Shown here piece by piece: positions 4,910-29,466 of a stretch of 46,017 bases of DNA. The stretch covers positions 1-46,017 of IMG/VR virus record IMGVR_UViG_3300042311_000319, one strand, 5' to 3'. A program made the translations under genes and the position numbers. Under the pieces are notes generated by a model that did no database searches, was not told the origin of the DNA, and saw only the letters and a program-made list of their open reading frames with translations. This DNA comes from a virus. The number at the start of each line of letters is the position of its first letter. Positions within the stretch are counted from its first letter, which is position 1.

Positions 4910-6034
4910 ATGAGCAAAATCTCTTCTCAAATTAAAACCATTGGTATCAATGAACTCTATAAAAACATTGAACTCATTATGGTTGCCGGTCTGGTTCCAT
5001 TAGTTCAATCTTCTCCCGGTATCGGCAAAACTTCTGTTGCCCGTATGTTCGGTTTCAAAAACAGACTGAAACTGATTGACGTTCGTTTGGCTACAGCTGA
5101 TCCAACAGATTTAACTGGTTTTCCGCGCATCAACCAGCAGACTAACCGTGCAGAATATGTACCATTCAACACTTTCCCGGTTGAGGGTGATCCATTACCT
5201 ATGGTCCCTAATCCAGCATTCGATTCTACACAGCCAGAATCGGCTACAAACGCCAAAGAAGTTCAGGCTAAAGGTTGGCTTATCGTATTCGACGAAATCA
5301 CCTCAGCCGTTCCTGCGCTGCAAGCAGCTGCATACAAGATCTTACTGGAGCGTGAAGTAGGATTGTTGAAGTTACACCCACGGGTAAAAATGATTGGTCT
5401 GGGTAACCGCATGACAGATAACGCTGTTGTATCGCGTATGTCTACTGCTCTGCAGTCACGGCTAATCCACTTAGTGGTAACAAGTGATCGTTCTACATGG
5501 TGTGATTGGGCCTATTCTGCAGGCGTCTTTACCCCTGTGATATCGTTCCTGAACTCTCGCCCACAGCTACTTAATAGCTTTGAGCCAGACCACAACGACA
5601 ATACTTTCCCTTGTGAACGTACTTGGGAATTTGTGTCTAAGTTGTGCAAAACAGCAATTACCCTGAACCAGCCAATTAATCTGGAAATGCTGCCTGTTAT
5701 TGCTGGTGCAATCGGCCAAGGTGCAGCACAAGAGTTCTTAGGTTTCATGTCTATTTACAACGACTTGATTCCTTTATCTGAAATCGTTGCTGATCCTGCT
5801 CGTGCCCGTATTCCCAATGAACCAGCAGGTAAATGGGCTATTACTGGCGTGATTGCAGACGGTATCAATGCAACTAACGTAGATAGACTGGTTGTTTATC
5901 TGCAACGTCTGGCAACTGAGTTCCAGATCATCACACTGCAGCAAATCTTTGCTTTGAATCCTGCAGTTCTCAAAACACCGGGCGCTATCAAATACGCTAC
6001 TGAAATGTCCAAATATTTAATCAGACGGAATTAA
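4910..6034 (+). CDS. MoxR-type AAA+ ATPase
   Basis: The 374-residue protein has a Walker A motif SSPGIGKT (residues 34-41), a Walker B LIVFDE (124-129) and a downstream GLGNR segment fitting sensor 1, the standard layout of MoxR AAA+ chaperones. Such ATPases pair with VWA-domain proteins to remodel or metallate target proteins. The VWA partner follows immediately (start 6036, one base after this stop). AGGAAA lies before the ATG. N4 and relatives carry the same AAA/VWA pair between their early and replication genes; the phage target of the pair is not known. Its coding sequence looks somewhat richer in GC than flanking genes. Confidence 0.88.
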   Translation: MSKISSQIKTIGINELYKNIELIMVAGLVPLVQSSPGIGKTSVARMFGFKNRLKLIDVRLATADPTDLTGFPRINQQTNRAEYVPFNTFPVEGDPLPMVPNPAFDSTQPESATNAKEVQAKGWLIVFDEITSAVPALQAAAYKILLEREVGLLKLHPRVKMIGLGNRMTDNAVVSRMSTALQSRLIHLVVTSDRSTWCDWAYSAGVFTPVISFLNSRPQLLNSFEPDHNDNTFPCERTWEFVSKLCKTAITLNQPINLEMLPVIAGAIGQGAAQEFLGFMSIYNDLIPLSEIVADPARARIPNEPAGKWAITGVIADGINATNVDRLVVYLQRLATEFQIITLQQIFALNPAVLKTPGAIKYATEMSKYLIRRN

Positions 6035-6035
6035 A

Positions 6036-7211
6036 ATGGAAGTTTCTTCAGAATTAGCACAAAAGTTGGACTTGGCTAAGTACAACTTTATTCGTGACCG
6101 TAAATCTGTTTTTCTGTGTAACTTGTTATTCAGTATGAACATTATTTGGGATGAAAAACATCCTTCACGAACTGCAGCAACTAACGGCATCAATTTAATA
6201 TTGGTGCCTTCTTTTTTTGAAAAGCTTGACGTAGATACTATTACTACTGTTCTTGCCCATGAAACGTGGCATGTTGCATTTAAGCACATGCTTCGTTGTG
6301 AAACCCGTAATCCATTAATTTGGAATATGGCTGCTGACTATGTAATTAACCTTTTTCTTCGGGATAACAATTATATTATCCCAAGTACTTGGCTTTGCGA
6401 TGAACAATTCCGTGACATGAACTCTGTTCAGGTTTACGACGAATTGATGAAAATGGTAAATAAATTGCCTCAGTACACTTCATTTGGTGAAGCTGGTTCT
6501 GGGGCTGATATGGATGCTCCCGGATCTGGGCAACCTGATCCAAATGGGCAACCTAAATCCGGTATGGGTGCTGCAGGTGTTGAAGCTGCTATTGATGCTG
6601 CTATTGCTAAAGCATGTGCTGCAGCAAAACAATCATCAGAAGGTTTCGGTAATTTACCCGGTGAAATTGAAGATGTGTTTGAACATATCTTTAATCCACG
6701 TATTCCTTGGGAATCTATTTTCCTGAATACACTCACTTCTTTTGCAAAAACAGATTACAGCTATAAACGCCAAAATCGTCGTTTTCCTGATCAAATCATT
6801 CCTTCTCTGTATGCACCTCATTACGGCGAAGTAGTATTTGCATTAGATACTTCTGGTTCTATGACTGATCATCAATGTGGTGCTTTTGTTACTGCAGCAG
6901 ATTATGTTATGGAAAACATCAAACCAGAACGCATGATTATTCATGATTTCGATACTGCTGTTCGCGGTACTCATATCATCGAAAATGGCCGTAGTATCCG
7001 CAAAATCGAGTTTAAAGGTCGTGGTGGTACTGATCTCGAAGATTTATTCAAAGTAGTCAGTAAAAAGAAACCATTGTTGCTGGTAGTTTACAGTGACCTT
7101 GATTGCGACCGTATTGAAAAAGATCCGGGATTTCCCGTTGTATGGATCTGTTGTGACAATCCACGGGCAGAAGTTAACTTCGGTAGACTTATTCATATCG
7201 ACACCGAGTAG
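6036..7211 (+). CDS. VWA-domain protein with N-terminal metallopeptidase-like motif
   Basis: This 391-residue protein is the expected partner of the upstream MoxR ATPase. Near the N-terminus it has HETWH (H75-E76-H79), the HExxH zinc-binding pattern, as in the putative metallopeptidase domain of DUF2201-type proteins. A Gly/Pro/Asp-rich linker follows (about 150-185). The C-terminal VWA domain carries a MIDAS metal site: D271-T-S-G-S275 and T332 in GRGGTDLED. The VWA half therefore looks able to bind a metal and a protein ligand. Whether the HETWH half cleaves anything is unknown. It stops with TAG at 7209-7211, and an open frame continues in phase beyond it (see 7221-7385). Confidence 0.85.
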   Translation: MEVSSELAQKLDLAKYNFIRDRKSVFLCNLLFSMNIIWDEKHPSRTAATNGINLILVPSFFEKLDVDTITTVLAHETWHVAFKHMLRCETRNPLIWNMAADYVINLFLRDNNYIIPSTWLCDEQFRDMNSVQVYDELMKMVNKLPQYTSFGEAGSGADMDAPGSGQPDPNGQPKSGMGAAGVEAAIDAAIAKACAAAKQSSEGFGNLPGEIEDVFEHIFNPRIPWESIFLNTLTSFAKTDYSYKRQNRRFPDQIIPSLYAPHYGEVVFALDTSGSMTDHQCGAFVTAADYVMENIKPERMIIHDFDTAVRGTHIIENGRSIRKIEFKGRGGTDLEDLFKVVSKKKPLLLVVYSDLDCDRIEKDPGFPVVWICCDNPRAEVNFGRLIHIDTE

Positions 7212-19368: not shown

Positions 19369-19547
19369 TGTTTAAATCCCTTTGGTTAATAGCTAAAGGG
19401 ATATTCATTACAGCAATGATAATAATAGCCACCTTAATCGGTGGCTTTATTATTTATGCTTCTGGAATAATCCTTTCTGTTGTACTTGCAGGCTTAGTAG
19501 TGTACTTCCTTGTACACGGGTACTTAGCCTACAAATCTAGTCAGTAG
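19368..19547 (+). CDS. Small two-helix membrane protein, 59 aa
   Basis: The ATG overlaps the previous stop (TAATG). The product starts MFKSLWLIAKG and is almost wholly hydrophobic, with two membrane helices (about residues 11-30 and 32-50) and a short polar tail. Size and shape are compatible with a holin-like or inner-membrane accessory protein, but there is no family match. It is the last gene of the rightward block and overlaps the vRNAP 3' end on the other strand by 11 bases. Two inverted repeats lie inside it, one of them terminator-like, so part of its coding constraint may be RNA structure. Confidence 0.62.
   Translation: MFKSLWLIAKGIFITAMIIIATLIGGFIIYASGIILSVVLAGLVVYFLVHGYLAYKSSQ
19376..19455 (+). 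terminator. Hairpins inside the last rightward gene, second one terminator-like
   Basis: ATCCCTTT (19376-19383) pairs with AAAGGGAT (19395-19402). Further on GCCACC-TTAATC-GGTGGC (19428-19445) is followed by TTTATTATTT. The second has the form of an intrinsic terminator for rightward transcription just before the convergent vRNAP gene. It lies within the reading frame of the 59-residue protein, so termination would be premature unless inefficient. Confidence 0.55.
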
Positions 19548-22500
19548 CCAGATTAATAATGTTACCACTCATTATGGTGGTAACAGGATCTGTCAGACCA
19601 AATTTGCTTTCAATAGCATCATCCCTTAATACACTTGCATCTGTTGGATCATCTAGATTTAAATCTAAGAAATGTTCCATCAAAAACAGTGCTAAAAGAT
19701 TGCCAGTCTTTTCAGTAGCAAGTTTGTATACCACTTTCTGTATACCTAAGAAAAACTTAGGAAACCACAGAATACCCATATCACTAAGCCAATGTAATGA
19801 ACGGTGCATAGGAATATCGTAGTTTACGAAGTTCTCTACTGCAGAATCTAAAGCGTCCATTTCATTCTTGCCTTGTTCTTTCTCATACTCAAACATTACA
19901 TATCTAGCTACAAAGTCGGACATCTGTGTAGCATTTCTCATTGCCTGATACAATTTAGTATCTTGAGCCATAAAGAATACTTTACCTAAGTCCATAACTA
20001 CATCCGGTACTCTGTTTGTAACTGGTGACATGATATCTTCCAGTTTACTCTTATAACCATATGTAACTTCTTCTGGATCAACTTCCTCAACAATTGTTTG
20101 GTAAACACCCAAATCAATTAATCTACTTACTGGTGAACCATTCATTTGAGTTTCTAACTCAACAAGTTTATTTTTTAACTTACCAATCTGAGTAATGCTC
20201 ATAGTACCCGCATTTGCTTTCAATTCGAATTCAATACGGTCATGTTCATACTTAGCATCTTGGTAATCGTTTGCTGCTTTCCATGCTTGCGAACTCAATT
20301 TAATAATCTTGTGAAACGGTACACCATGCATTCTAAGTAACACAATGTTAGAAATAATGTTACCTACTGCAACTACACCTGATTTAACTACGATTACATC
20401 TCGAACCATCTTCATTAAATCTTTCCAAGCTTCCTCAGCAACACCTACGTACTTATGACCCAGCAATTTAAATACATACTTTGCTAAATCATTCTGCAAG
20501 TACTTACGTGTAGATTTCAAACCACGTTGGCTTATTTCATCCAATGTCAGTTTACGGAAACCAAAAACAGTACTTACGTTAGAGTGATGAACCATCAAAC
20601 CATTAAAGTCACTGTTATCTTTGATATACCGTTTCATATCACTCGGTAAACGATACCAAATCTCTTTGTACTCTAACTTGGTTGAGTCAGGTCCAATATA
20701 TACATAATCTCTTTTATTATTAGAGTTTTTGTATTCTTCAATTGAAGCATCTACTAAAGCTCTGTTAATAGTTTTACTGTTTGCTTTATCCTTCATATGA
20801 GATTCCATATGCCCCATTACATCATCAAAAGCATCATGTCTTTCTAATAACGTCTTCTTATCCTGATTAGTCATTACATACCGATAACCAGCAAGCATTT
20901 CATATTCATTCAAGATAGGCAACAGTTTAACTTTATTTCCTTTATAGTTATTTCTTTCTGCTGCTGTATTCTTCTGTTTCTTCTGTTTACTAATTCTACT
21001 GTTATCTTTTCCTGTTTGTCTTGCTGCTTGTACATAGACAGACTTAATCTTATCAGAACTTGCATTTTGATCCATAGATGCAGATTCTTGGATAACATAA
21101 CCATCAAATACATCAGTACCTCTATGTGTAGTATCAGTACCAGATACAATACCTGCTTGATATGTTGCTAACTTAGCATCGTCATTTACATACATAAATA
21201 CTTTTGCTTTTCTATATAATGGTGGATTATCTTTGAAATCTTGAATTTCACTTTCTGATACACCACTACTACGCATAAAGTTTACAACATCTCTTAAGTT
21301 AGGTATTTCACCTACAGTTAAATCATCCTGATCTTTATCTAACATCCTGATCGGTCTGTAGCCTTGTTCCATCAAAGCTGGATCGAATGGCATAACACTA
21401 AAGCGAATGGCTTTATTAGGATTGAATATTTCCTTGATATAGCCTTTTTTCATATTAGTCTTGTTACCATCAAACGAAATATCTAATGCATCTTGTTTAT
21501 ACGTATCATGGATACGCAATGCAAAGATAAATCCATTTTCATCCAATGAAGCACCATTACTAACTTCATTATCAATAACATCTTTAATATTTTTTAAATC
21601 TTCTGGTGTTTGTAAAGTTAAAGCTTTTAACGATACATATACATCAATAAGATCTTCCATCTTAGAAGCATCTACAGTTTTATCTTTAGTCAGTCTCAAT
21701 GCTTGGTTAGCAATCAAATAAGCATTTTGAACTGAGTTCTCTACAGTACCTGCACCACCATTAACAATAATATCAGCTAAGCTATCACCCATATTAATAA
21801 ACCAGTTTCCTGTTGCATGAGTACTATTGCTTCTAATTAACTTATCGTATCTGTTAATTTGATCCATCAAATAACTTGGTTCAGTTACCAACTTATAAAT
21901 ATCACTTCCGCTGAATGCATCCAGCAATCTTGACATATCGCCCATATAACCAACACGAGTAATAGATTCTTTCTGTTCAATGTTTAATTTCCCTTTAAAC
22001 TGTTCAGTCAGAATATTTTTAACCACCCGTTGTACATACTTACGCATCTGATCGATATGGTTGTTAGCTTTAGCCAACATCAAATGCAGATGTCTATTGT
22101 CTTTGGTTCTACCTCTGATATTCGTCAGAAGGTGTGTACCAAAGCTTTCTTTGTTCTGCTTCAGTCTTGCCCGGACTTCACGCATAACCTTTGTAAACTC
22201 ACCTGCTTGGCTCTGACTGGTAGCAGTGATTACACGAGCTGTAGCACGTTTTAACGTGTTCTTGCTTCCACGCACAGCAGAACTACCTGCCCACTTGATT
22301 ATCGGCTCTACGATCCACTGAGCAATCTGAGAGCGTACTGCTTCATTCCATGAACCAAGTAAATCAATCTGCTGTCCCATCTTTGTTTTCTGTCTGGTGT
22401 TAATACCAACCAGAGTAGCTAACAAGATATGCAATTGTTGATCGTACTTCTTAGTATCAATACCTTGTATTTTATTAAATACTGTATCAATGATTTCTTT

Positions 22501-25500
22501 AACTAAATCTAAGAAACTATTAATAACCTTATCTAAGTACTTAACTAGCGTAGCATCAGACTTAGTTTCTTTTGTTTTAGCTTTTAATACCAGTTTCAAT
22601 GCTGCTGCATACTGTGGCTTATTCAGAGCTGCCATAAATGCTGCATTAGTTGCACCAAACGCTACAAACTCTTCTAAGCCTGCATTACTACGTTTAGTAG
22701 ATTTCATTCCCACTACATCTATTGATTCCTGGGTATCAATGTTTTTATTACGGAAAATATAATTAAATCTGTCTTTAGCTAACTTAGTTTGTTCTTCTGT
22801 AGGATTAGTAATAGTATTACCATTTTGATCCAATGGAAGAAAATCCACATAGCTTAAGTTACCATCATCAATCATCTGTTGAGCTGCGTCATACATTGCT
22901 CTGATTCTTCTTGCAACCATATCACCGCTTCTTAAAACGTTGACTGTGACTGCGTGAATCAATTCGTGAGCATATACTTCTGCTGCACTCATACCAGCTT
23001 TCAATTCTTCATTAACAGAGACAAATACATTTATCTTTTCTTTTAATCCTTCATATGAACCAAATGTATTACCTTCAGTTGAACCAAGGATAAAACTAAT
23101 TGGATCTGTAATCTTCTGGCTAAACTCACCAACGATTTCCCTTAACTGGTTTAATCTTGAATCACTCTCTTGTACTACACCCATCTTGGCAACTTCATCA
23201 AAAATATCAATTGCACTATCGGCAGACAGAGGAATCTCTTTATTTACCTTGGCTGTAGTACTTGTTTCTTCAGAAGAACCAAAAAACCTTTCTACATACA
23301 AATCAACTAAGTTATCTTCTTTTACTTGTAAAGCACTATCTAAAGCATCGTATTGGCTGATAGATGTTACATCGATAGCATTTCTTAAATTGTTTTGTTT
23401 TTTAATGGTACTTTCTACTAATTTAGTAAATTGACCAAATGTTTCAATTCCTTTGAAAGCTGCTTTCACTTTTCCTGTTTCAGGATTAGTGCTCATATCA
23501 TTCCAGATTCTGCTTACTGTACCAGCATCAGATTTACTAATCATATGCTCTACCTGCTTCAGTACAGCAGTAGTCATATCGTACTCACTCATTACAGCTT
23601 GTTTGAACGAATCGTTTAGCTGAGCAATTGTGTAACGAGCATTCTGGATACTCATACCTTTTGCATCGTGTTCGTTTAAACCAACGTTATCCAGTTGAGA
23701 CAAAGCCATCGTCATAGCATCCAGCATCTGTACCATCATTGCTCCAATGGATACACCCGGATCTTTAGCTTGACGTACTGAAGGACGTACAGTAGACATT
23801 CTGTAAGCACCTTTACCGGTACTGTCTCTATTCTTCTTCAATCGCAGTACTACTTTGTCTTCATCTTTTTGTGATCTTACTTTCTCTGATTTACCGATAG
23901 CTAAACCATCTTCAGTACCTTCTGAAAATGGTGTATCAAGAATCTGATACATACCCTCTTCAAACATAATGTTTTCAATAAAATCTTCTTCAGTAGTTGT
24001 TAATTCAGCAACTGAATCTTTATTGAAATGCTTTTTCATTAAACTAAGTTTAAAGTCTTCAGATAAGTTATACATTAATTGACTAGCAATAATGATCTTA
24101 GATCTTTTCTCTAACATATCACCATATACATCATCCATCGCCAGTATTAACGGACTACCATGTGAATGCTGCATTACCGCATTTAATACATTCTTTTGTT
24201 TATCAGAGAAGTTAAACTTTCTTCTTTGTTCAATTGTCATAGAAGCAATTGGTTCCCAAGTAAATAGTTGAGAAAACAATGCATCCATTCTTTCTAATTC
24301 TTTTTGATGTTCATCATATTTAGCATCAGATGGATTCTTACCAATTTTTTCCAACCATACTAATATTTGATCATCCATAATTTTATTAATAGAAGCTTTA
24401 ACACTTGAACCATAGTTACCAGTCATAGTAGGTGACTTAGACAAGTTACGTCCGAAACTGCTAATAACATTGTTTACTTTAATATGACCAACTAAATCCT
24501 GCATAATTTTAGTTGCAAGAGTTGGTTCAATATTAAAACTTTCCAGTTTTTCAATATTACCTTCGATTTTCTTCATATCACCAAAACTAAGTGAGCTGAC
24601 AACATCAGGTAATGTTTTATTTAAAAATAACTGTAACTTGTCATGCCAAGATGAACCAAGCACTTGATATGAATCCATGTTCCCCGGTGTCTTAGACCAT
24701 TTCACATAAGAATCGATATCAGCTGTATCATAAATACCAGCTCTCTTTAATGCAGCTATAAGCTGTGGTTTAGTTTTACCCATGGCAAATTGCCATACAC
24801 CGATTGCCACACCGTTAGCTACACCATCAACTTCCAATATCAGATCTGTTTCAAATGGATTCTCCATATCCATTACAGACAAAGCTTTAATACCGTGCAG
24901 AGCATGTAAGTTGGTTTTGGTTCCTTTTACAAAATCAATCAGCTTACCTACTTCTTCCGTACGTTGTGCTTCATCTTCATACTCACTGTTAGCTACTTTC
25001 TTATAGATAGCAGTTAACTCTTTCATTTTTTCATTATTGAAAGTTTCTTCAAAATAAGCATCAACAGTACCGTTATCCATTGCTTGGATATATCTGTTCA
25101 TCATATCTTTACTATCGAATGCTTCGATTAAAGATAAAATGAAATAATGCTTATGATCTTTATTTTTAAAGTCTAATGTAGACTTACTTGAAAGATATCC
25201 AAACAATCTACGAGCAATTTTACTTGTTTGAGGATTACCAACAGTATTAGTAAAACCCATACGTAAGTTTTTCCAAATTACTACTGGAAAATAAAATGGT
25301 TTATTGATTGTTACTGCTTCATTTAAAAACTCTATTGATTGATCTAAGTCTCTCAATAAAGCATCGTTACTTGCTTTAATACTTTCAGCTACAACAAAGT
25401 TATTGTTATCAGCATCTTTATCTATACCAACAAGCTCTTGCTGTTCTGCTGTGGTAAATCCCAAGAAATCAATAGCCAATGATGTTGGGCCAGCTGGTTC

Positions 25501-28500
25501 CCTTGACATCTTGTTTACTGCTTGCTTTTGTTTACGTGAAGCTTTCTGTTTTGACTTTTTAATTTCAAACTCTGCTTCATTCTCTTCATCCATTAACTCA
25601 CCATTATATTCCGCTGGAATATGGAATGTAGGTGTAGTACTTGGCTTGTTCACATCAAACAGTCTTTCTAATACTTTCTTGTCTGGAGCCGGTTGTTCAG
25701 CACGAGCCATTCTTTCCCGCTTCAGAGCATCTTTAGCTGCTTCTAAATATGGATGTAACTTGATTGGTCTTTTACCACCAATTGTATTAATACGAACCAT
25801 AGTTATTGCTTTGAAGGCTGAACTTTCTTTATTCAGCAACATATCTAAAGCATATTTAAATGATGAATCTTCTAAACCACTAATGTAATTTTTATTGTAC
25901 TGATTCAGTGTAATAAACTTCGCTTCTTCCATAGTCTGTAATAACAAACCACCAAAACCAGAAACAAGCTGACCCATCTGAATAGCTGTAGTATTTGGTC
26001 CTCTTTTAATACCCATAGCTTTAACAAAGTCTGAACCAATTGATTCAGCAACCATATTGATTGGTTCGCCTAATTGATTCATTGCAGCAATTAATGAGTA
26101 TGGGATTTCTGCATCATCATCCATTCCCAGTATCTTACGTACTCTACGTGCATCAAAATTGATAGTGTTTACGCCATCAGTTAATGCCCACTCTAAAGCA
26201 CTAGCAGCCATCTTAGATAATATGTTGTCATCAATATGACCATATGTATCCATAATCAAAGCTGTATAGTTATTTTCTTTTAATGCATCTTCAACACTAT
26301 TTGATTCAGCAAAAGTATTTTTAAATGCTTTAATAAATGCTTGTTCAAACTTTAAGAATGAATCTATTACTTCATTCTCTTCAGTAGTAAATGTACCAAC
26401 TGAATCACGATCATTTCTTAATTTATTAGAAATATTTCTGATTCTATTAATAGTTCCTTTATTTTTAGATACTTCAAATATTTCATGCATTTTATTATGA
26501 AATGGTTTAGTAACACTTTCAATTAAACTAACACCTTTCATATAAGCATTATTTAATAAAGAGTAAGTACCATCTTCATTCTTTTTAATATTTTTAATTG
26601 TATTGTCTAAAGCATCTTCCATACCTTTAGCCATTACAGTTAATACTTTATCTACTTGTTCTACAGATAAAGTAAATTTGTTCTTTTCAATCCATTTGAA
26701 TACAGCATCCACATTTTTCTTTAAAGTAGGTTTATCAATAGAAGCATCTTTGATTCTTCCTGTTACAGCTAATACACCACCTAAAGTTCTTGTTACTTTT
26801 TCCTGTATTTTTACTTTGTCTGCTTTCCAGTTAATTTTTGTTTTAACTGGTTCCTTAACTTCTTCTTTAACTTCCTCTGTTACTTCTTCCTGTACTTTTT
26901 CTTTTTTGTCTGTTTTTACTTCATCAACATTCAAATCTGAAATAGTTGGTTCAATTCTTTCTTTTTTATCTTCTACTTTTGGTTCTGGTACAACTTCAGC
27001 TACTTTACCTTCCTTCGGTTCTTTTAATGGAATAGCTGGTTGTGGTGTTACCACTTCTGGTATTGGCTCTACAGCTTCTGTAGTGGCCTGTGTCGGTACT
27101 TCTACTGCTGCCGGTACAAACACTTCAGGTTTGGTTTCGCTGTAGCCTACAAGCTGACTGAGTGCTTCATACTCTGCTTGAATGGCTTGAGCCTCTGCCT
27201 GAATCATTTGAACCATGGCACCTGAGCTGCCGTGGATCTTGTATTTCCGACCATTGATACCATACCGATCAGACAACTCCTGATTCAGGATATCCATTTC
27301 TTGATAGGCAGTACCGGCTTTGGCTTTTTCAAATACACCACCAAAGTCCAATGCTTTCTCTGTATGAGCTGCAGCAAAATTCCCCAGTTGTTGTAAGTAT
27401 TGCTTTGCTACTTCGATATTGCCTGCAGTCAATGCACGTTTAATACGTCCTGTATGCTGTTTTAAGCCTACGAAGTTATCACCCCCTACAATCACATCAT
27501 CATTGATCTGATTCATGCTTGGGATGTTTCTACGAGCTTCTTGTGCAACTTCTACTGCATCAGTTGCAACCAATGTCTTTTCAGCAATCTCTTTTACTTC
27601 AGGAGATGTTTCTTCTGTTTCAATAATGTCATTTAATGCAGTAGTAGTCAGACCTTGTGAACTTGAGCCAAGAGTTCTAAGTACCCGGTCAGAAAACTCT
27701 GTAGTTCCAATCTTATTATCTTTAACTTGCTTCTTAAGATCTTTAATACCTTGAGAACCAGCAAAAGAAGCTTGGAACAATTCAATACTAGTAGCTAACT
27801 GTTTACTTAAAGTATCCAGCTCTTTCTTCTCAGCAGCAGTTCTTTTATCTACTGGAATAGCAGCTAACTCATCTACTCTTACAGTAGTATCAGTAATGAT
27901 TTCAGATACTGTCTTTTGTAATTTAAAAGCAGCATTGTTATCATCTTTAACTTTATCTAAGTTAGTAGCAGATACTAATGAACCAACAACTAAATCAATA
28001 TCTTTATTCAGTTTACTAACTTTACTATAGTCACCAGTATTTACTGCATTATCTACAGCAGCCATAATCTTTTTATCAGATTGAGCCTGTGCAGCTACCT
28101 TAGCTAATTTATTAGCACCAGCAGTTAATGTTTCTCTACCAGTAGACAATACAGCAGTAGTTGCACCAGCAGATAAACCACCTTCAGCAGCTGCAGCACC
28201 AGTACCCTCTAATGGTTTAGCAGTTTTATCCGAATACAGATATTCAGCGTTATTCTGGATGATCTCACCGGTAACACCTTGAATAACTTCTTCAGCAGTT
28301 TCTTTGGTAGTAGCTGAACCAACTTTACCAGCAGTACTGTTTAAAGCATCTGTAGCCAATGATTTAAGCTTTGATGGTTTAGTGGCTTGATCCAATACAA
28401 TATCACCAGTCTTGTAACCGGCACTTTCTAACTTTGCAGTACCCATCAGTTTAGATGTTACTGCTGCAGTGGCAAATGTAGCCCAATAGGTATACTGGAA

Positions 28501-29466
28501 TGCATTATCTGCTACAGCTTCTTTAGCTTTCTGTCTTGCTAAGTTAATTTGCCCTGCTGTTGGATTTTTTAAATCTTTTAGTTCAGCATCTAACTTTTCA
28601 TTATATAAAGGAGACTTCTGTACTAAATCTTCGTGTGATTTACCCAGAACATTCATTTTCGATTCTATTGCATTAGAACCCGCTTCAGTGGCACCAATTG
28701 CAGCTACGCCAGCTGCTCCCTTGGCAGTCGCAGTGGCTGCTGCATTGGCACCAACTTTAGCGGCTACTTTACCTGCTAATGCACTAGCAGAAGCAGGAGC
28801 AACAAAGGCTAATGCTGATTCTAAACTTGAATCAATTAAAGCTGTAGGATTATCAATTAATGATTCTACATTGACAGAAGCAATAGCAGCTTGACGTTTT
28901 ACATCACCCCAGAATGAACCATCTGAAGTAATATCCTGTGAAGCTTTAGCAACGTCTTTATTAACTACTGCTCTTGCTGCTTGTGATTTATCTGACATTT
29001 GAGAGTTAATAAACTCTCTGCCTTTCTTTAATCCTTCCATTACAGGATTAAGATCAACATTCTTACCAGTTACTTTATTTACTATTTCACCAATAGCAGT
29101 AACTGCTTCACCAGCAAGAATAGCATTCTTACTTAATGAAAGTGCTGTATCAGAAGCAACTTCGCCCAAAGTACGATCTTCATTAGCAAAAGCTCGTAAT
29201 CTGTTATCAGCTACTAATTCACTTAAAGCATTTTGGTTATTCTCTGCTTCACTAACAAACGAGTCATTAGTACTAGCAAATGAGATATTATCTACAGGTT
29301 TATCAAAAACAGTTCCGCCAATAGCTTCTTGGTTTTGATTTGCTGTATTAATTATTTCGGTTGGTTTAATTTGAGCGTCAGAAACAAGCTTTCTATACTT
29401 GTCCTGAACAGAAGAAGACACGAGTAATTGTTTTAACTCGGCCCCTGTTTCCGGGAGTTTTTGCAT
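19537..29466 (-). CDS. Virion RNA polymerase (N4 gp50-like), with embedded metallopeptidase-like segment
   Basis: This 3309-residue protein is the N4-type RNA polymerase carried in the capsid and injected with the DNA to transcribe early genes from hairpin promoters. All T7-like catalytic motifs are seen: R1402 in a TxxGR-like segment (WKNLRMGFTN), motif A D1547 in EVDGVANG, motif B R1673-x3-K1677-x7-Y1685-G and motif C H1933-D1934. Spacing agrees with N4. Residues 1-820 form the N-terminal ejection part, with a hydrophobic Ala-rich stretch near 220-270. A Lys/Glu linker lies at about 820-885. Past the core, HELIH (2167-2171) with EEF (2265-2267) looks like a zinc peptidase. The C-terminal 1000 residues include a membrane-like helix (about 3020-3045) and are expected to handle packaging. 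AGGTGA precedes the ATG. No frame break. Confidence 0.95.
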   Translation of the reverse strand: MQKLPETGAELKQLLVSSSVQDKYRKLVSDAQIKPTEIINTANQNQEAIGGTVFDKPVDNISFASTNDSFVSEAENNQNALSELVADNRLRAFANEDRTLGEVASDTALSLSKNAILAGEAVTAIGEIVNKVTGKNVDLNPVMEGLKKGREFINSQMSDKSQAARAVVNKDVAKASQDITSDGSFWGDVKRQAAIASVNVESLIDNPTALIDSSLESALAFVAPASASALAGKVAAKVGANAAATATAKGAAGVAAIGATEAGSNAIESKMNVLGKSHEDLVQKSPLYNEKLDAELKDLKNPTAGQINLARQKAKEAVADNAFQYTYWATFATAAVTSKLMGTAKLESAGYKTGDIVLDQATKPSKLKSLATDALNSTAGKVGSATTKETAEEVIQGVTGEIIQNNAEYLYSDKTAKPLEGTGAAAAEGGLSAGATTAVLSTGRETLTAGANKLAKVAAQAQSDKKIMAAVDNAVNTGDYSKVSKLNKDIDLVVGSLVSATNLDKVKDDNNAAFKLQKTVSEIITDTTVRVDELAAIPVDKRTAAEKKELDTLSKQLATSIELFQASFAGSQGIKDLKKQVKDNKIGTTEFSDRVLRTLGSSSQGLTTTALNDIIETEETSPEVKEIAEKTLVATDAVEVAQEARRNIPSMNQINDDVIVGGDNFVGLKQHTGRIKRALTAGNIEVAKQYLQQLGNFAAAHTEKALDFGGVFEKAKAGTAYQEMDILNQELSDRYGINGRKYKIHGSSGAMVQMIQAEAQAIQAEYEALSQLVGYSETKPEVFVPAAVEVPTQATTEAVEPIPEVVTPQPAIPLKEPKEGKVAEVVPEPKVEDKKERIEPTISDLNVDEVKTDKKEKVQEEVTEEVKEEVKEPVKTKINWKADKVKIQEKVTRTLGGVLAVTGRIKDASIDKPTLKKNVDAVFKWIEKNKFTLSVEQVDKVLTVMAKGMEDALDNTIKNIKKNEDGTYSLLNNAYMKGVSLIESVTKPFHNKMHEIFEVSKNKGTINRIRNISNKLRNDRDSVGTFTTEENEVIDSFLKFEQAFIKAFKNTFAESNSVEDALKENNYTALIMDTYGHIDDNILSKMAASALEWALTDGVNTINFDARRVRKILGMDDDAEIPYSLIAAMNQLGEPINMVAESIGSDFVKAMGIKRGPNTTAIQMGQLVSGFGGLLLQTMEEAKFITLNQYNKNYISGLEDSSFKYALDMLLNKESSAFKAITMVRINTIGGKRPIKLHPYLEAAKDALKRERMARAEQPAPDKKVLERLFDVNKPSTTPTFHIPAEYNGELMDEENEAEFEIKKSKQKASRKQKQAVNKMSREPAGPTSLAIDFLGFTTAEQQELVGIDKDADNNNFVVAESIKASNDALLRDLDQSIEFLNEAVTINKPFYFPVVIWKNLRMGFTNTVGNPQTSKIARRLFGYLSSKSTLDFKNKDHKHYFILSLIEAFDSKDMMNRYIQAMDNGTVDAYFEETFNNEKMKELTAIYKKVANSEYEDEAQRTEEVGKLIDFVKGTKTNLHALHGIKALSVMDMENPFETDLILEVDGVANGVAIGVWQFAMGKTKPQLIAALKRAGIYDTADIDSYVKWSKTPGNMDSYQVLGSSWHDKLQLFLNKTLPDVVSSLSFGDMKKIEGNIEKLESFNIEPTLATKIMQDLVGHIKVNNVISSFGRNLSKSPTMTGNYGSSVKASINKIMDDQILVWLEKIGKNPSDAKYDEHQKELERMDALFSQLFTWEPIASMTIEQRRKFNFSDKQKNVLNAVMQHSHGSPLILAMDDVYGDMLEKRSKIIIASQLMYNLSEDFKLSLMKKHFNKDSVAELTTTEEDFIENIMFEEGMYQILDTPFSEGTEDGLAIGKSEKVRSQKDEDKVVLRLKKNRDSTGKGAYRMSTVRPSVRQAKDPGVSIGAMMVQMLDAMTMALSQLDNVGLNEHDAKGMSIQNARYTIAQLNDSFKQAVMSEYDMTTAVLKQVEHMISKSDAGTVSRIWNDMSTNPETGKVKAAFKGIETFGQFTKLVESTIKKQNNLRNAIDVTSISQYDALDSALQVKEDNLVDLYVERFFGSSEETSTTAKVNKEIPLSADSAIDIFDEVAKMGVVQESDSRLNQLREIVGEFSQKITDPISFILGSTEGNTFGSYEGLKEKINVFVSVNEELKAGMSAAEVYAHELIHAVTVNVLRSGDMVARRIRAMYDAAQQMIDDGNLSYVDFLPLDQNGNTITNPTEEQTKLAKDRFNYIFRNKNIDTQESIDVVGMKSTKRSNAGLEEFVAFGATNAAFMAALNKPQYAAALKLVLKAKTKETKSDATLVKYLDKVINSFLDLVKEIIDTVFNKIQGIDTKKYDQQLHILLATLVGINTRQKTKMGQQIDLLGSWNEAVRSQIAQWIVEPIIKWAGSSAVRGSKNTLKRATARVITATSQSQAGEFTKVMREVRARLKQNKESFGTHLLTNIRGRTKDNRHLHLMLAKANNHIDQMRKYVQRVVKNILTEQFKGKLNIEQKESITRVGYMGDMSRLLDAFSGSDIYKLVTEPSYLMDQINRYDKLIRSNSTHATGNWFINMGDSLADIIVNGGAGTVENSVQNAYLIANQALRLTKDKTVDASKMEDLIDVYVSLKALTLQTPEDLKNIKDVIDNEVSNGASLDENGFIFALRIHDTYKQDALDISFDGNKTNMKKGYIKEIFNPNKAIRFSVMPFDPALMEQGYRPIRMLDKDQDDLTVGEIPNLRDVVNFMRSSGVSESEIQDFKDNPPLYRKAKVFMYVNDDAKLATYQAGIVSGTDTTHRGTDVFDGYVIQESASMDQNASSDKIKSVYVQAARQTGKDNSRISKQKKQKNTAAERNNYKGNKVKLLPILNEYEMLAGYRYVMTNQDKKTLLERHDAFDDVMGHMESHMKDKANSKTINRALVDASIEEYKNSNNKRDYVYIGPDSTKLEYKEIWYRLPSDMKRYIKDNSDFNGLMVHHSNVSTVFGFRKLTLDEISQRGLKSTRKYLQNDLAKYVFKLLGHKYVGVAEEAWKDLMKMVRDVIVVKSGVVAVGNIISNIVLLRMHGVPFHKIIKLSSQAWKAANDYQDAKYEHDRIEFELKANAGTMSITQIGKLKNKLVELETQMNGSPVSRLIDLGVYQTIVEEVDPEEVTYGYKSKLEDIMSPVTNRVPDVVMDLGKVFFMAQDTKLYQAMRNATQMSDFVARYVMFEYEKEQGKNEMDALDSAVENFVNYDIPMHRSLHWLSDMGILWFPKFFLGIQKVVYKLATEKTGNLLALFLMEHFLDLNLDDPTDASVLRDDAIESKFGLTDPVTTIMSGNIINLATD

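What the first reader, a model, noticed from the sequence alone, without database searches (positions are those of the whole stretch)
22660..22968. A zinc-metallopeptidase-like (gluzincin) motif set inside the C-terminal region of the virion RNA polymerase
Seen: HELIHAVT (H2167, E2168, H2171) in vRNAP and, about 94 residues later, GLEEFVAFGATNAAF (E2265/E2266). Known: HExxH plus a downstream Glu is the zinc site of gluzincins, and the E-E-F-V-A then T-N-x-x-F spacing resembles the metallopeptidases of phage polyvalent proteins that are injected with DNA. Inference: the polymerase may carry a protease that acts during packaging, on itself, or on host proteins after injection. I do not recall such a domain being described for N4 vRNAP.
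Basis: partly seen in the sequence, partly recalled or inferred. Interest (0 to 1): 0.75.

Follow-up and report, generated by a model that had tools for sequence, protein, structure and literature searches.

The report
Metalloprotease-like domain in injected RNA polymerase
The giant RNA polymerase that this N4-like phage injects carries a zinc-protease-like domain, a kind of domain already described for N4 in 2017; what seems new is that in this phage lineage the intact active site lies in the second of two related domains, the one that is degenerate in N4, while every relative surveyed keeps at least one intact copy.

Summary
HELIH (2167-2171) is in the vRNAP (window 19537-29466, minus strand). 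The downstream partner is E2266, not E2265: in 55 homologous domains only H2167, E2168, H2171, E2266 and F2267 never vary. AlphaFold2 gives a confident model (pLDDT 87, pTM 0.84) with zincin-like element order, but ligand distances could not be measured.

Iyer et al. 2017 described a zincin metallopeptidase in N4 vRNAP (aa 2130-2448) and proposed the same functions; Bellis et al. 2025 noted the HExxH in their cryo-EM structure.

What I add: schitovirus vRNAPs have two homologous tandem domains, A and B. N4 and most relatives have an intact A and a dead B (N4 about 2384-2580, within "C2", reported to lack structural homologues). The window's lineage lacks A and keeps B intact. Of 163 non-redundant vRNAPs: 97 A+/B-dead, 61 B+ without A between polymerase and B, 3 both, 1 A+ with undetected B, 1 dead B with A moved N-terminal. 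All keep at least one intact site. Vibrio phage phi 1 differs from VCO139 by a 654-nt in-frame block, the A domain.

Best explanation: an active gluzincin-type peptidase acting after ejection. Activity and substrate are untested.

The parts
19537..29466 (-). vRNAP gene, 3309 aa
   Evidence: ORF and translation; PHROG 2206 virion RNA polymerase, E ~0; N4 vRNAP PDB chains
23767..25929 (-). RNA polymerase domain stretch (residues 1180-1900) with the conserved EVDGVANG motif; used as tree and search anchor
   Evidence: Conserved across 24 vRNAPs
22483..23229 (-). Domain B, intact zincin-like metallopeptidase domain (residues 2080-2328)
   Evidence: Profile comparison with N4-type domain A 99.0%, E 3.9e-18, and with dead B 99.8%, E 1e-27; AlphaFold2 pLDDT 87.3, pTM 0.84
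23017..23100 (-). Three predicted strands before the active-site helix (residues 2123-2150)
   Evidence: Strands at model residues 64-71, 76-80, 85-91
22954..22968 (-). HELIH, residues 2167-2171: two predicted histidine ligands and predicted catalytic glutamate E2168
   Evidence: Invariant in 55 B domains; 0 of 73 dead B domains keep the first H
22669..22671 (-). E2266, predicted third metal ligand, in the helix after the insert
   Evidence: E in 55 of 55 intact and 0 of 73 dead B domains; helix at model residues 203-214
22645..22668 (-). FVAFGATN, residues 2267-2274, conserved tail of the ligand helix
   Evidence: F2267 invariant, N2274 nearly so
23230..23328 (-). Short linker (about residues 2047-2079) between polymerase end and domain B, where many relatives carry domain A; A is absent here
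   Evidence: Full-length alignment; no A hit in the window protein
19687..20949 (-). Conserved C-terminal region (residues 2840-3260), shared with N4

Best explanation
Domain B of this vRNAP is a gluzincin-type zinc metallopeptidase domain of the polyvalent-protein kind. H2167, H2171 and E2266 would hold the metal, and E2168 would activate the water (inferred from the family and from invariance). It is one of two homologous tandem zincin-like domains of schitovirus vRNAPs; N4 has its intact site in domain A and a dead B, whereas this phage lacks A and has its intact site in B. The peptidase most likely becomes active only after the vRNAP has been ejected and refolded in the host, cleaving either linkers of the vRNAP or the ejectosome itself or a host protein. 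Shown here: the sequence, its conservation, the two-domain pattern, the predicted order of structural elements. Inferred: metal binding, proteolysis, timing, substrate.
For: Invariance of the HExxH and downstream Glu residues in both domains: in A-type domains H101, E102, H105 and E183 are the only invariant columns among 16, and E104, H108, E109, H112 and E190 among 73; in B-type domains the same set plus one Phe among 55. A and B are homologous (99.0%, E 3.9e-18; unrelated controls and shuffles at most 1.3%; 78.6% with motifs masked). Predicted strands, HExxH helix and Glu helix follow the zincin order. Structure search ranks several zincin peptidases among its top, though not significant, PDB hits; viral hits include vRNAPs (best 4e-11), polyvalent proteins and, weakly, SprT and M48 proteins. 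Some weak Pfam hits of individual members are to zincin families. All 163 vRNAPs keep at least one intact copy, even where it moved to the N-terminal side. Dead B lacks both the first H (0 of 73) and the third Glu (0 of 73). A homologous segment is found in other podoviral ejection proteins with solved structures (9sfn, E 4e-22; 8vb2, E 5e-8). Literature: PMC5512222 and PMC12633501.
Against: No metal, activity or substrate has been shown. The window sequence itself has no significant Pfam peptidase hit, and no PDB fold match reaches E 0.001. Recombinant N4 vRNAP showed no degradation, and N4 vRNAP is packaged unprocessed, so constitutive self-cleavage is unlikely.
Confidence: 0.6

Rival explanations
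1. Self-processing after injection (a specific form of the best explanation): the peptidase cuts vRNAP linkers (NTD-RNAP or RNAP-CTD) and thereby frees the polymerase from its inhibitory C-terminal part.
For: The CTD lowers N4 RNAP activity and promoter binding does not release it; A or B usually follows directly after the RNAP-CTD linker; Iyer et al. proposed processing.
Against: No degradation of recombinant gp50; the intact domain may lie on either side of the polymerase, so it has no fixed position relative to one linker.
Confidence: 0.3
2. Injected effector (another specific form): the domain cleaves a host protein, for example a defence protein, early in infection.
For: The domain is gained, lost and moved without change to its surroundings (phi 1 versus VCO139; N-terminal copies), which fits a trans-acting module; some vRNAPs carry two or three intact copies.
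Against: At least one copy is kept in all 163 surveyed vRNAPs, from phages of very different hosts, more like a core role than a host-specific one; no substrate known.
Confidence: 0.28
3. The metal site is structural or serves a non-proteolytic reaction; the zincin fold is a scaffold for packaging or translocation.
For: The region is needed for encapsidation of N4 vRNAP; dead B domains persist and are as conserved as A (mean top-residue fraction 0.36 versus 0.33), so the fold seems to have a structural role; Bellis et al. also mention the HExxH of radical-SAM-linked enzymes.
Against: The general-base glutamate of HExxH is invariant, which a structural metal site would not need; the scaffold evidently persists without the site in dead B.
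Confidence: 0.2
4. Chance motif without function.
For: Shuffled protein shows an HExxH in 4% of trials.
Against: Invariance across 55 B and 73 A domains.
Confidence: 0.01

Closest known systems
Zincin-like metallopeptidase (MPTase) domain of N4 vRNAP and polyvalent proteins (Iyer et al. 2017, PMC5512222)
   Same: HExxH helix, downstream Glu in a second helix, three strands before; in a giant protein ejected with the DNA; [quoted passage not shown]
   Different: The domain described there for N4 (2130-2448, HExxH 2228-2232) is domain A; the window lacks A and has its site in domain B, whose N4 counterpart is dead. A paralogous dead domain was not mentioned in the passages read.
C1 domain of N4 vRNAP in cryo-EM (Bellis et al. 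2025, PMC12633501; 9pnr, 9pnt)
   Same: HExxH noted as found in zincin metalloproteases; lies directly after the RNAP domain.
   Different: C1 is domain A; the homologue of the window's domain falls in the first part of C2, reported to lack significant structural homology.
MPTase-like segments in other podoviral ejection proteins (PDB 9sfn chain G, 416-564; 8vb2, phage PhiM1 gp48, 378-512)
   Same: Sequence profile of domain A matches (E 4e-22 and 5e-8), in 9sfn with HEAVH and a downstream KELVAWGLT motif.
   Different: Carrier is an internal virion protein, not a vRNAP; the PhiM1 paper does not mention a peptidase or a zinc site. The alignment for 8vb2 was not printed, so its motif was not checked.

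Membership tests
Gluzincin-type zincin peptidase | HExxH in a helix | tested here: met
   H2167/E2168/H2171 invariant in 55; helix at model residues 102-121
Gluzincin-type zincin peptidase | Downstream glutamate ligand in a second helix | tested here: met
   E2266 invariant; helix 203-214
Gluzincin-type zincin peptidase | Three-stranded sheet before the active-site helix | tested here: inconclusive
   Three strands 64-71, 76-80, 85-91 in the AlphaFold2 model, in the right order; their arrangement as one sheet was not verified from coordinates
Gluzincin-type zincin peptidase | The three ligands converge on one metal | not testable with these tools
   No coordinates returned
Gluzincin-type zincin peptidase | Significant match to a known zincin structure or curated family | tested here: inconclusive
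   Top PDB fold hits include zincins but none at E 0.001; Pfam hits of members are weak, best 2.9e-5 for DUF6782 in one A-type member
Gluzincin-type zincin peptidase | Zinc binding and proteolysis | not testable with these tools
   Needs experiment
Polyvalent-protein MPTase of N4-like vRNAPs | Homology to the N4 MPTase domain | tested here: met
   A versus B 99.0%, E 3.9e-18, controls at most 1.3%
Polyvalent-protein MPTase of N4-like vRNAPs | Orthologous position to the N4 MPTase (domain A) | tested here: not met
   Window has no A; the profile of its domain matches N4 2437-2581 best, E 2.7e-12, and it lies in the B slot
Schitoviridae virion RNA polymerase | Giant protein with N4-type RNAP and C-terminal region | tested here: met
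   PHROG 2206 and N4 PDB chains

The most novel reading that the evidence does not exclude
Schitovirus vRNAPs descend from a tandem pair of metallopeptidase domains in which the active site has been handed between copies: at least one copy must stay active while the other decays into a helical scaffold or is lost, so the first part of N4's unexplained C2 domain is a dead metallopeptidase.
Probability: 0.6. Interest if true: 0.55.

Novelty: new variant of a known kind. Interest (0 to 1): 0.45.

Why it matters
The function of the vRNAP C-terminal half is an open question in N4 biology. The retention of at least one intact site, in whichever copy, says that the catalytic site itself, not only the fold, is under strong constraint, and names the exact residues to mutate in N4 (H2228, E2229, H2232, E2310). 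It also gives an evolutionary origin for part of the C2 domain, and natural comparisons such as phi 1 versus VCO139 for testing what the extra copy does.

Tried and rejected
Single-sequence search of the window domain in viral contigs found no relative. Pfam on the whole vRNAP found nothing. The independent-pairs test of 'A present' against 'B dead' is not significant because changes are few (2 same way, 0 opposite, 3 no difference), so the reciprocity is stated as a pattern, not as a statistically proven correlation. The case L227 first looked like a loss of all sites, but has an A-type site at residue 890. E2265 as ligand was rejected. Chance motif rejected. Foldseek matches with low TM-score and large rmsd were not used as proof of fold identity.

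Full report
Observation. The window is a 46-kb virus record. The minus-strand gene 19537-29466 encodes a 3309-aa protein that matches PHROG 2206, virion RNA polymerase, and N4 vRNAP chains in the PDB. It has one HExxH, HELIH at 2167-2171, and GLEEFVAFGATN at 2263-2274. One HExxH in so large a protein has a 4% chance by shuffling, so the case rests on conservation.

Conservation. I took intact vRNAP genes from 23 named phages and found HExxH in all of them; two (phi 1 and PG11) have two in tandem, and D505 has a further one in its polymerase half that is not of this kind. Adding virus contigs from three scans gave 163 vRNAPs that are less than 90% identical in the stretch between polymerase and C-terminal region. 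Among 55 B-type domains, at 19-38% identity to the window, only H2167, E2168, H2171, E2266 and F2267 never vary. Among 73 A-type vRNAPs the only invariant columns over both domains are E104, H108, E109, H112 and E190, all in domain A.

Two domains. Full-length alignment shows two consecutive domains after the polymerase, here called A and B. Profile comparison supports common descent of A and B: 99.0%, E 3.9e-18, while comparisons with the polymerase, the C-terminal region and column-shuffled profiles give at most 1.3%; with both motifs masked the score is still 78.6%, E 1.7e-5. N4's own second domain is recognised as a B domain without its active site: intact versus dead B gives 99.8%, E 1e-27, and the intact-B profile, built without N4, finds N4 residues 2437-2581 at E 2.7e-12. 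In 73 dead B domains the first histidine is never H and the third ligand is never E, while F2267 is kept in 65. The AlphaFold2 model of an N4-like A+B stretch predicts essentially only helices in dead B, where the window's B has three strands, and matches the N4 cryo-EM entries at E 2e-27. Dead B is as conserved as A on average (0.36 versus 0.33), so it is not simply decaying.

Pattern. The tally is 97 A+/B-dead, 61 B+ without A between polymerase and B (5 of these with an additional A-type domain before the polymerase), 3 with both intact, 1 with A and no B detected (its B-like stretch also lacks the motif, by eye), and 1 (L227) with dead B whose A-type site lies at residue 890, before the polymerase. 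The A and B scans select for the motifs; the scan with the polymerase motif does not. Clusters with a member from that scan are 39, 19, 1, 1 and 1 in the same order. A polymerase tree needs at least 7 changes for A presence and 4 for the B state; this is too few for a significant test. Tree branches are long and the method was FastTree, so counts are approximate. Vibrio phage phi 1 has a 654-nt in-frame block (the A domain) missing from VCO139, JA-1, JSF3 and 12VC501; against VCO139-type DNA (L174) the flanks are 94-96% identical. The A module can therefore be gained or lost without disturbing the rest.

Fold. The model of window residues 2060-2330 has pLDDT 87.3 and pTM 0.84. The order of elements, three strands, a helix with HExxH and a later helix with E2266, is that described for zincins (description from PMC5512222). 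Foldseek against the PDB finds nothing at E 0.001; the weak top hits include several zincin peptidases but also unrelated proteins. Against predicted viral proteins it finds vRNAPs and, more weakly, polyvalent proteins, an internal core protein, SprT-like and M48 proteins. Convergence of the ligands was not measured.

Prior knowledge. Iyer et al. [quoted passage not shown] they note that N4 vRNAP is packaged unprocessed and that the region is needed for encapsidation. Bellis et al. 2025 report a conserved HExxH in C1 (2124-2375), say that C2 (2376-3500) has no significant structural homology, show that the CTD inhibits transcription, and saw no degradation of the recombinant protein. I found no mention in these texts, in the parts and with the words I searched, of a dead second copy; the supplements were not read.

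Mechanism. I favour a peptidase that is active after ejection. The invariant general-base glutamate argues for catalysis and against a purely structural metal site. The retained copy can sit at three places in the protein, which fits a domain that acts at a distance or in trans better than one tied to one linker. Whether the substrate is the vRNAP or ejectosome itself or a host protein cannot be decided from sequence. Homologous segments in other podoviral ejection proteins (9sfn, 8vb2) suggest that this is a wider feature of ejected proteins.

Verdict. Real, already known in kind, with an apparently new detail of which copy holds the active site.

Noticed in passing
window 6036-7211 (+) and 4910-6034 (+): A second HExxH protein: DUF2201_N putative metallopeptidase with a VWA-like domain (Pfam E 7e-34 and 3e-25), next to an ATPase gene; PHROG labels the first an HNH endonuclease, which disagrees with Pfam.
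   Followed up: partly
L177 4955-8248 and 8224-14739: The vRNAP appears split into two overlapping ORFs: 1098 aa with an A-type metallopeptidase motif and 2172 aa with polymerase and intact B. True split or assembly frameshift not decided.
   Followed up: partly
L245, residues 72-556 of its vRNAP ORF: Two A-type domains with intact motifs in tandem before the polymerase plus an intact B after it: three copies in one protein.
   Followed up: partly
L023 (Alteromonas phage AD45-P1): vRNAP-like gene in two frames, with no HExxH in any forward frame of the annotated stretch; annotated as a potential frameshift and not assigned to Schitoviridae in the record. A possible exception to the rule, not analysed.
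   Followed up: no
L165 3289-9222: A 1978-aa protein without a detected vRNAP polymerase or C-terminal match carries an A-type domain (HELVH).
   Followed up: no
L007 (Vibrio phage 1.169.O): 4093-aa vRNAP with about 500 extra residues between polymerase and domain B, of unknown nature.
   Followed up: no
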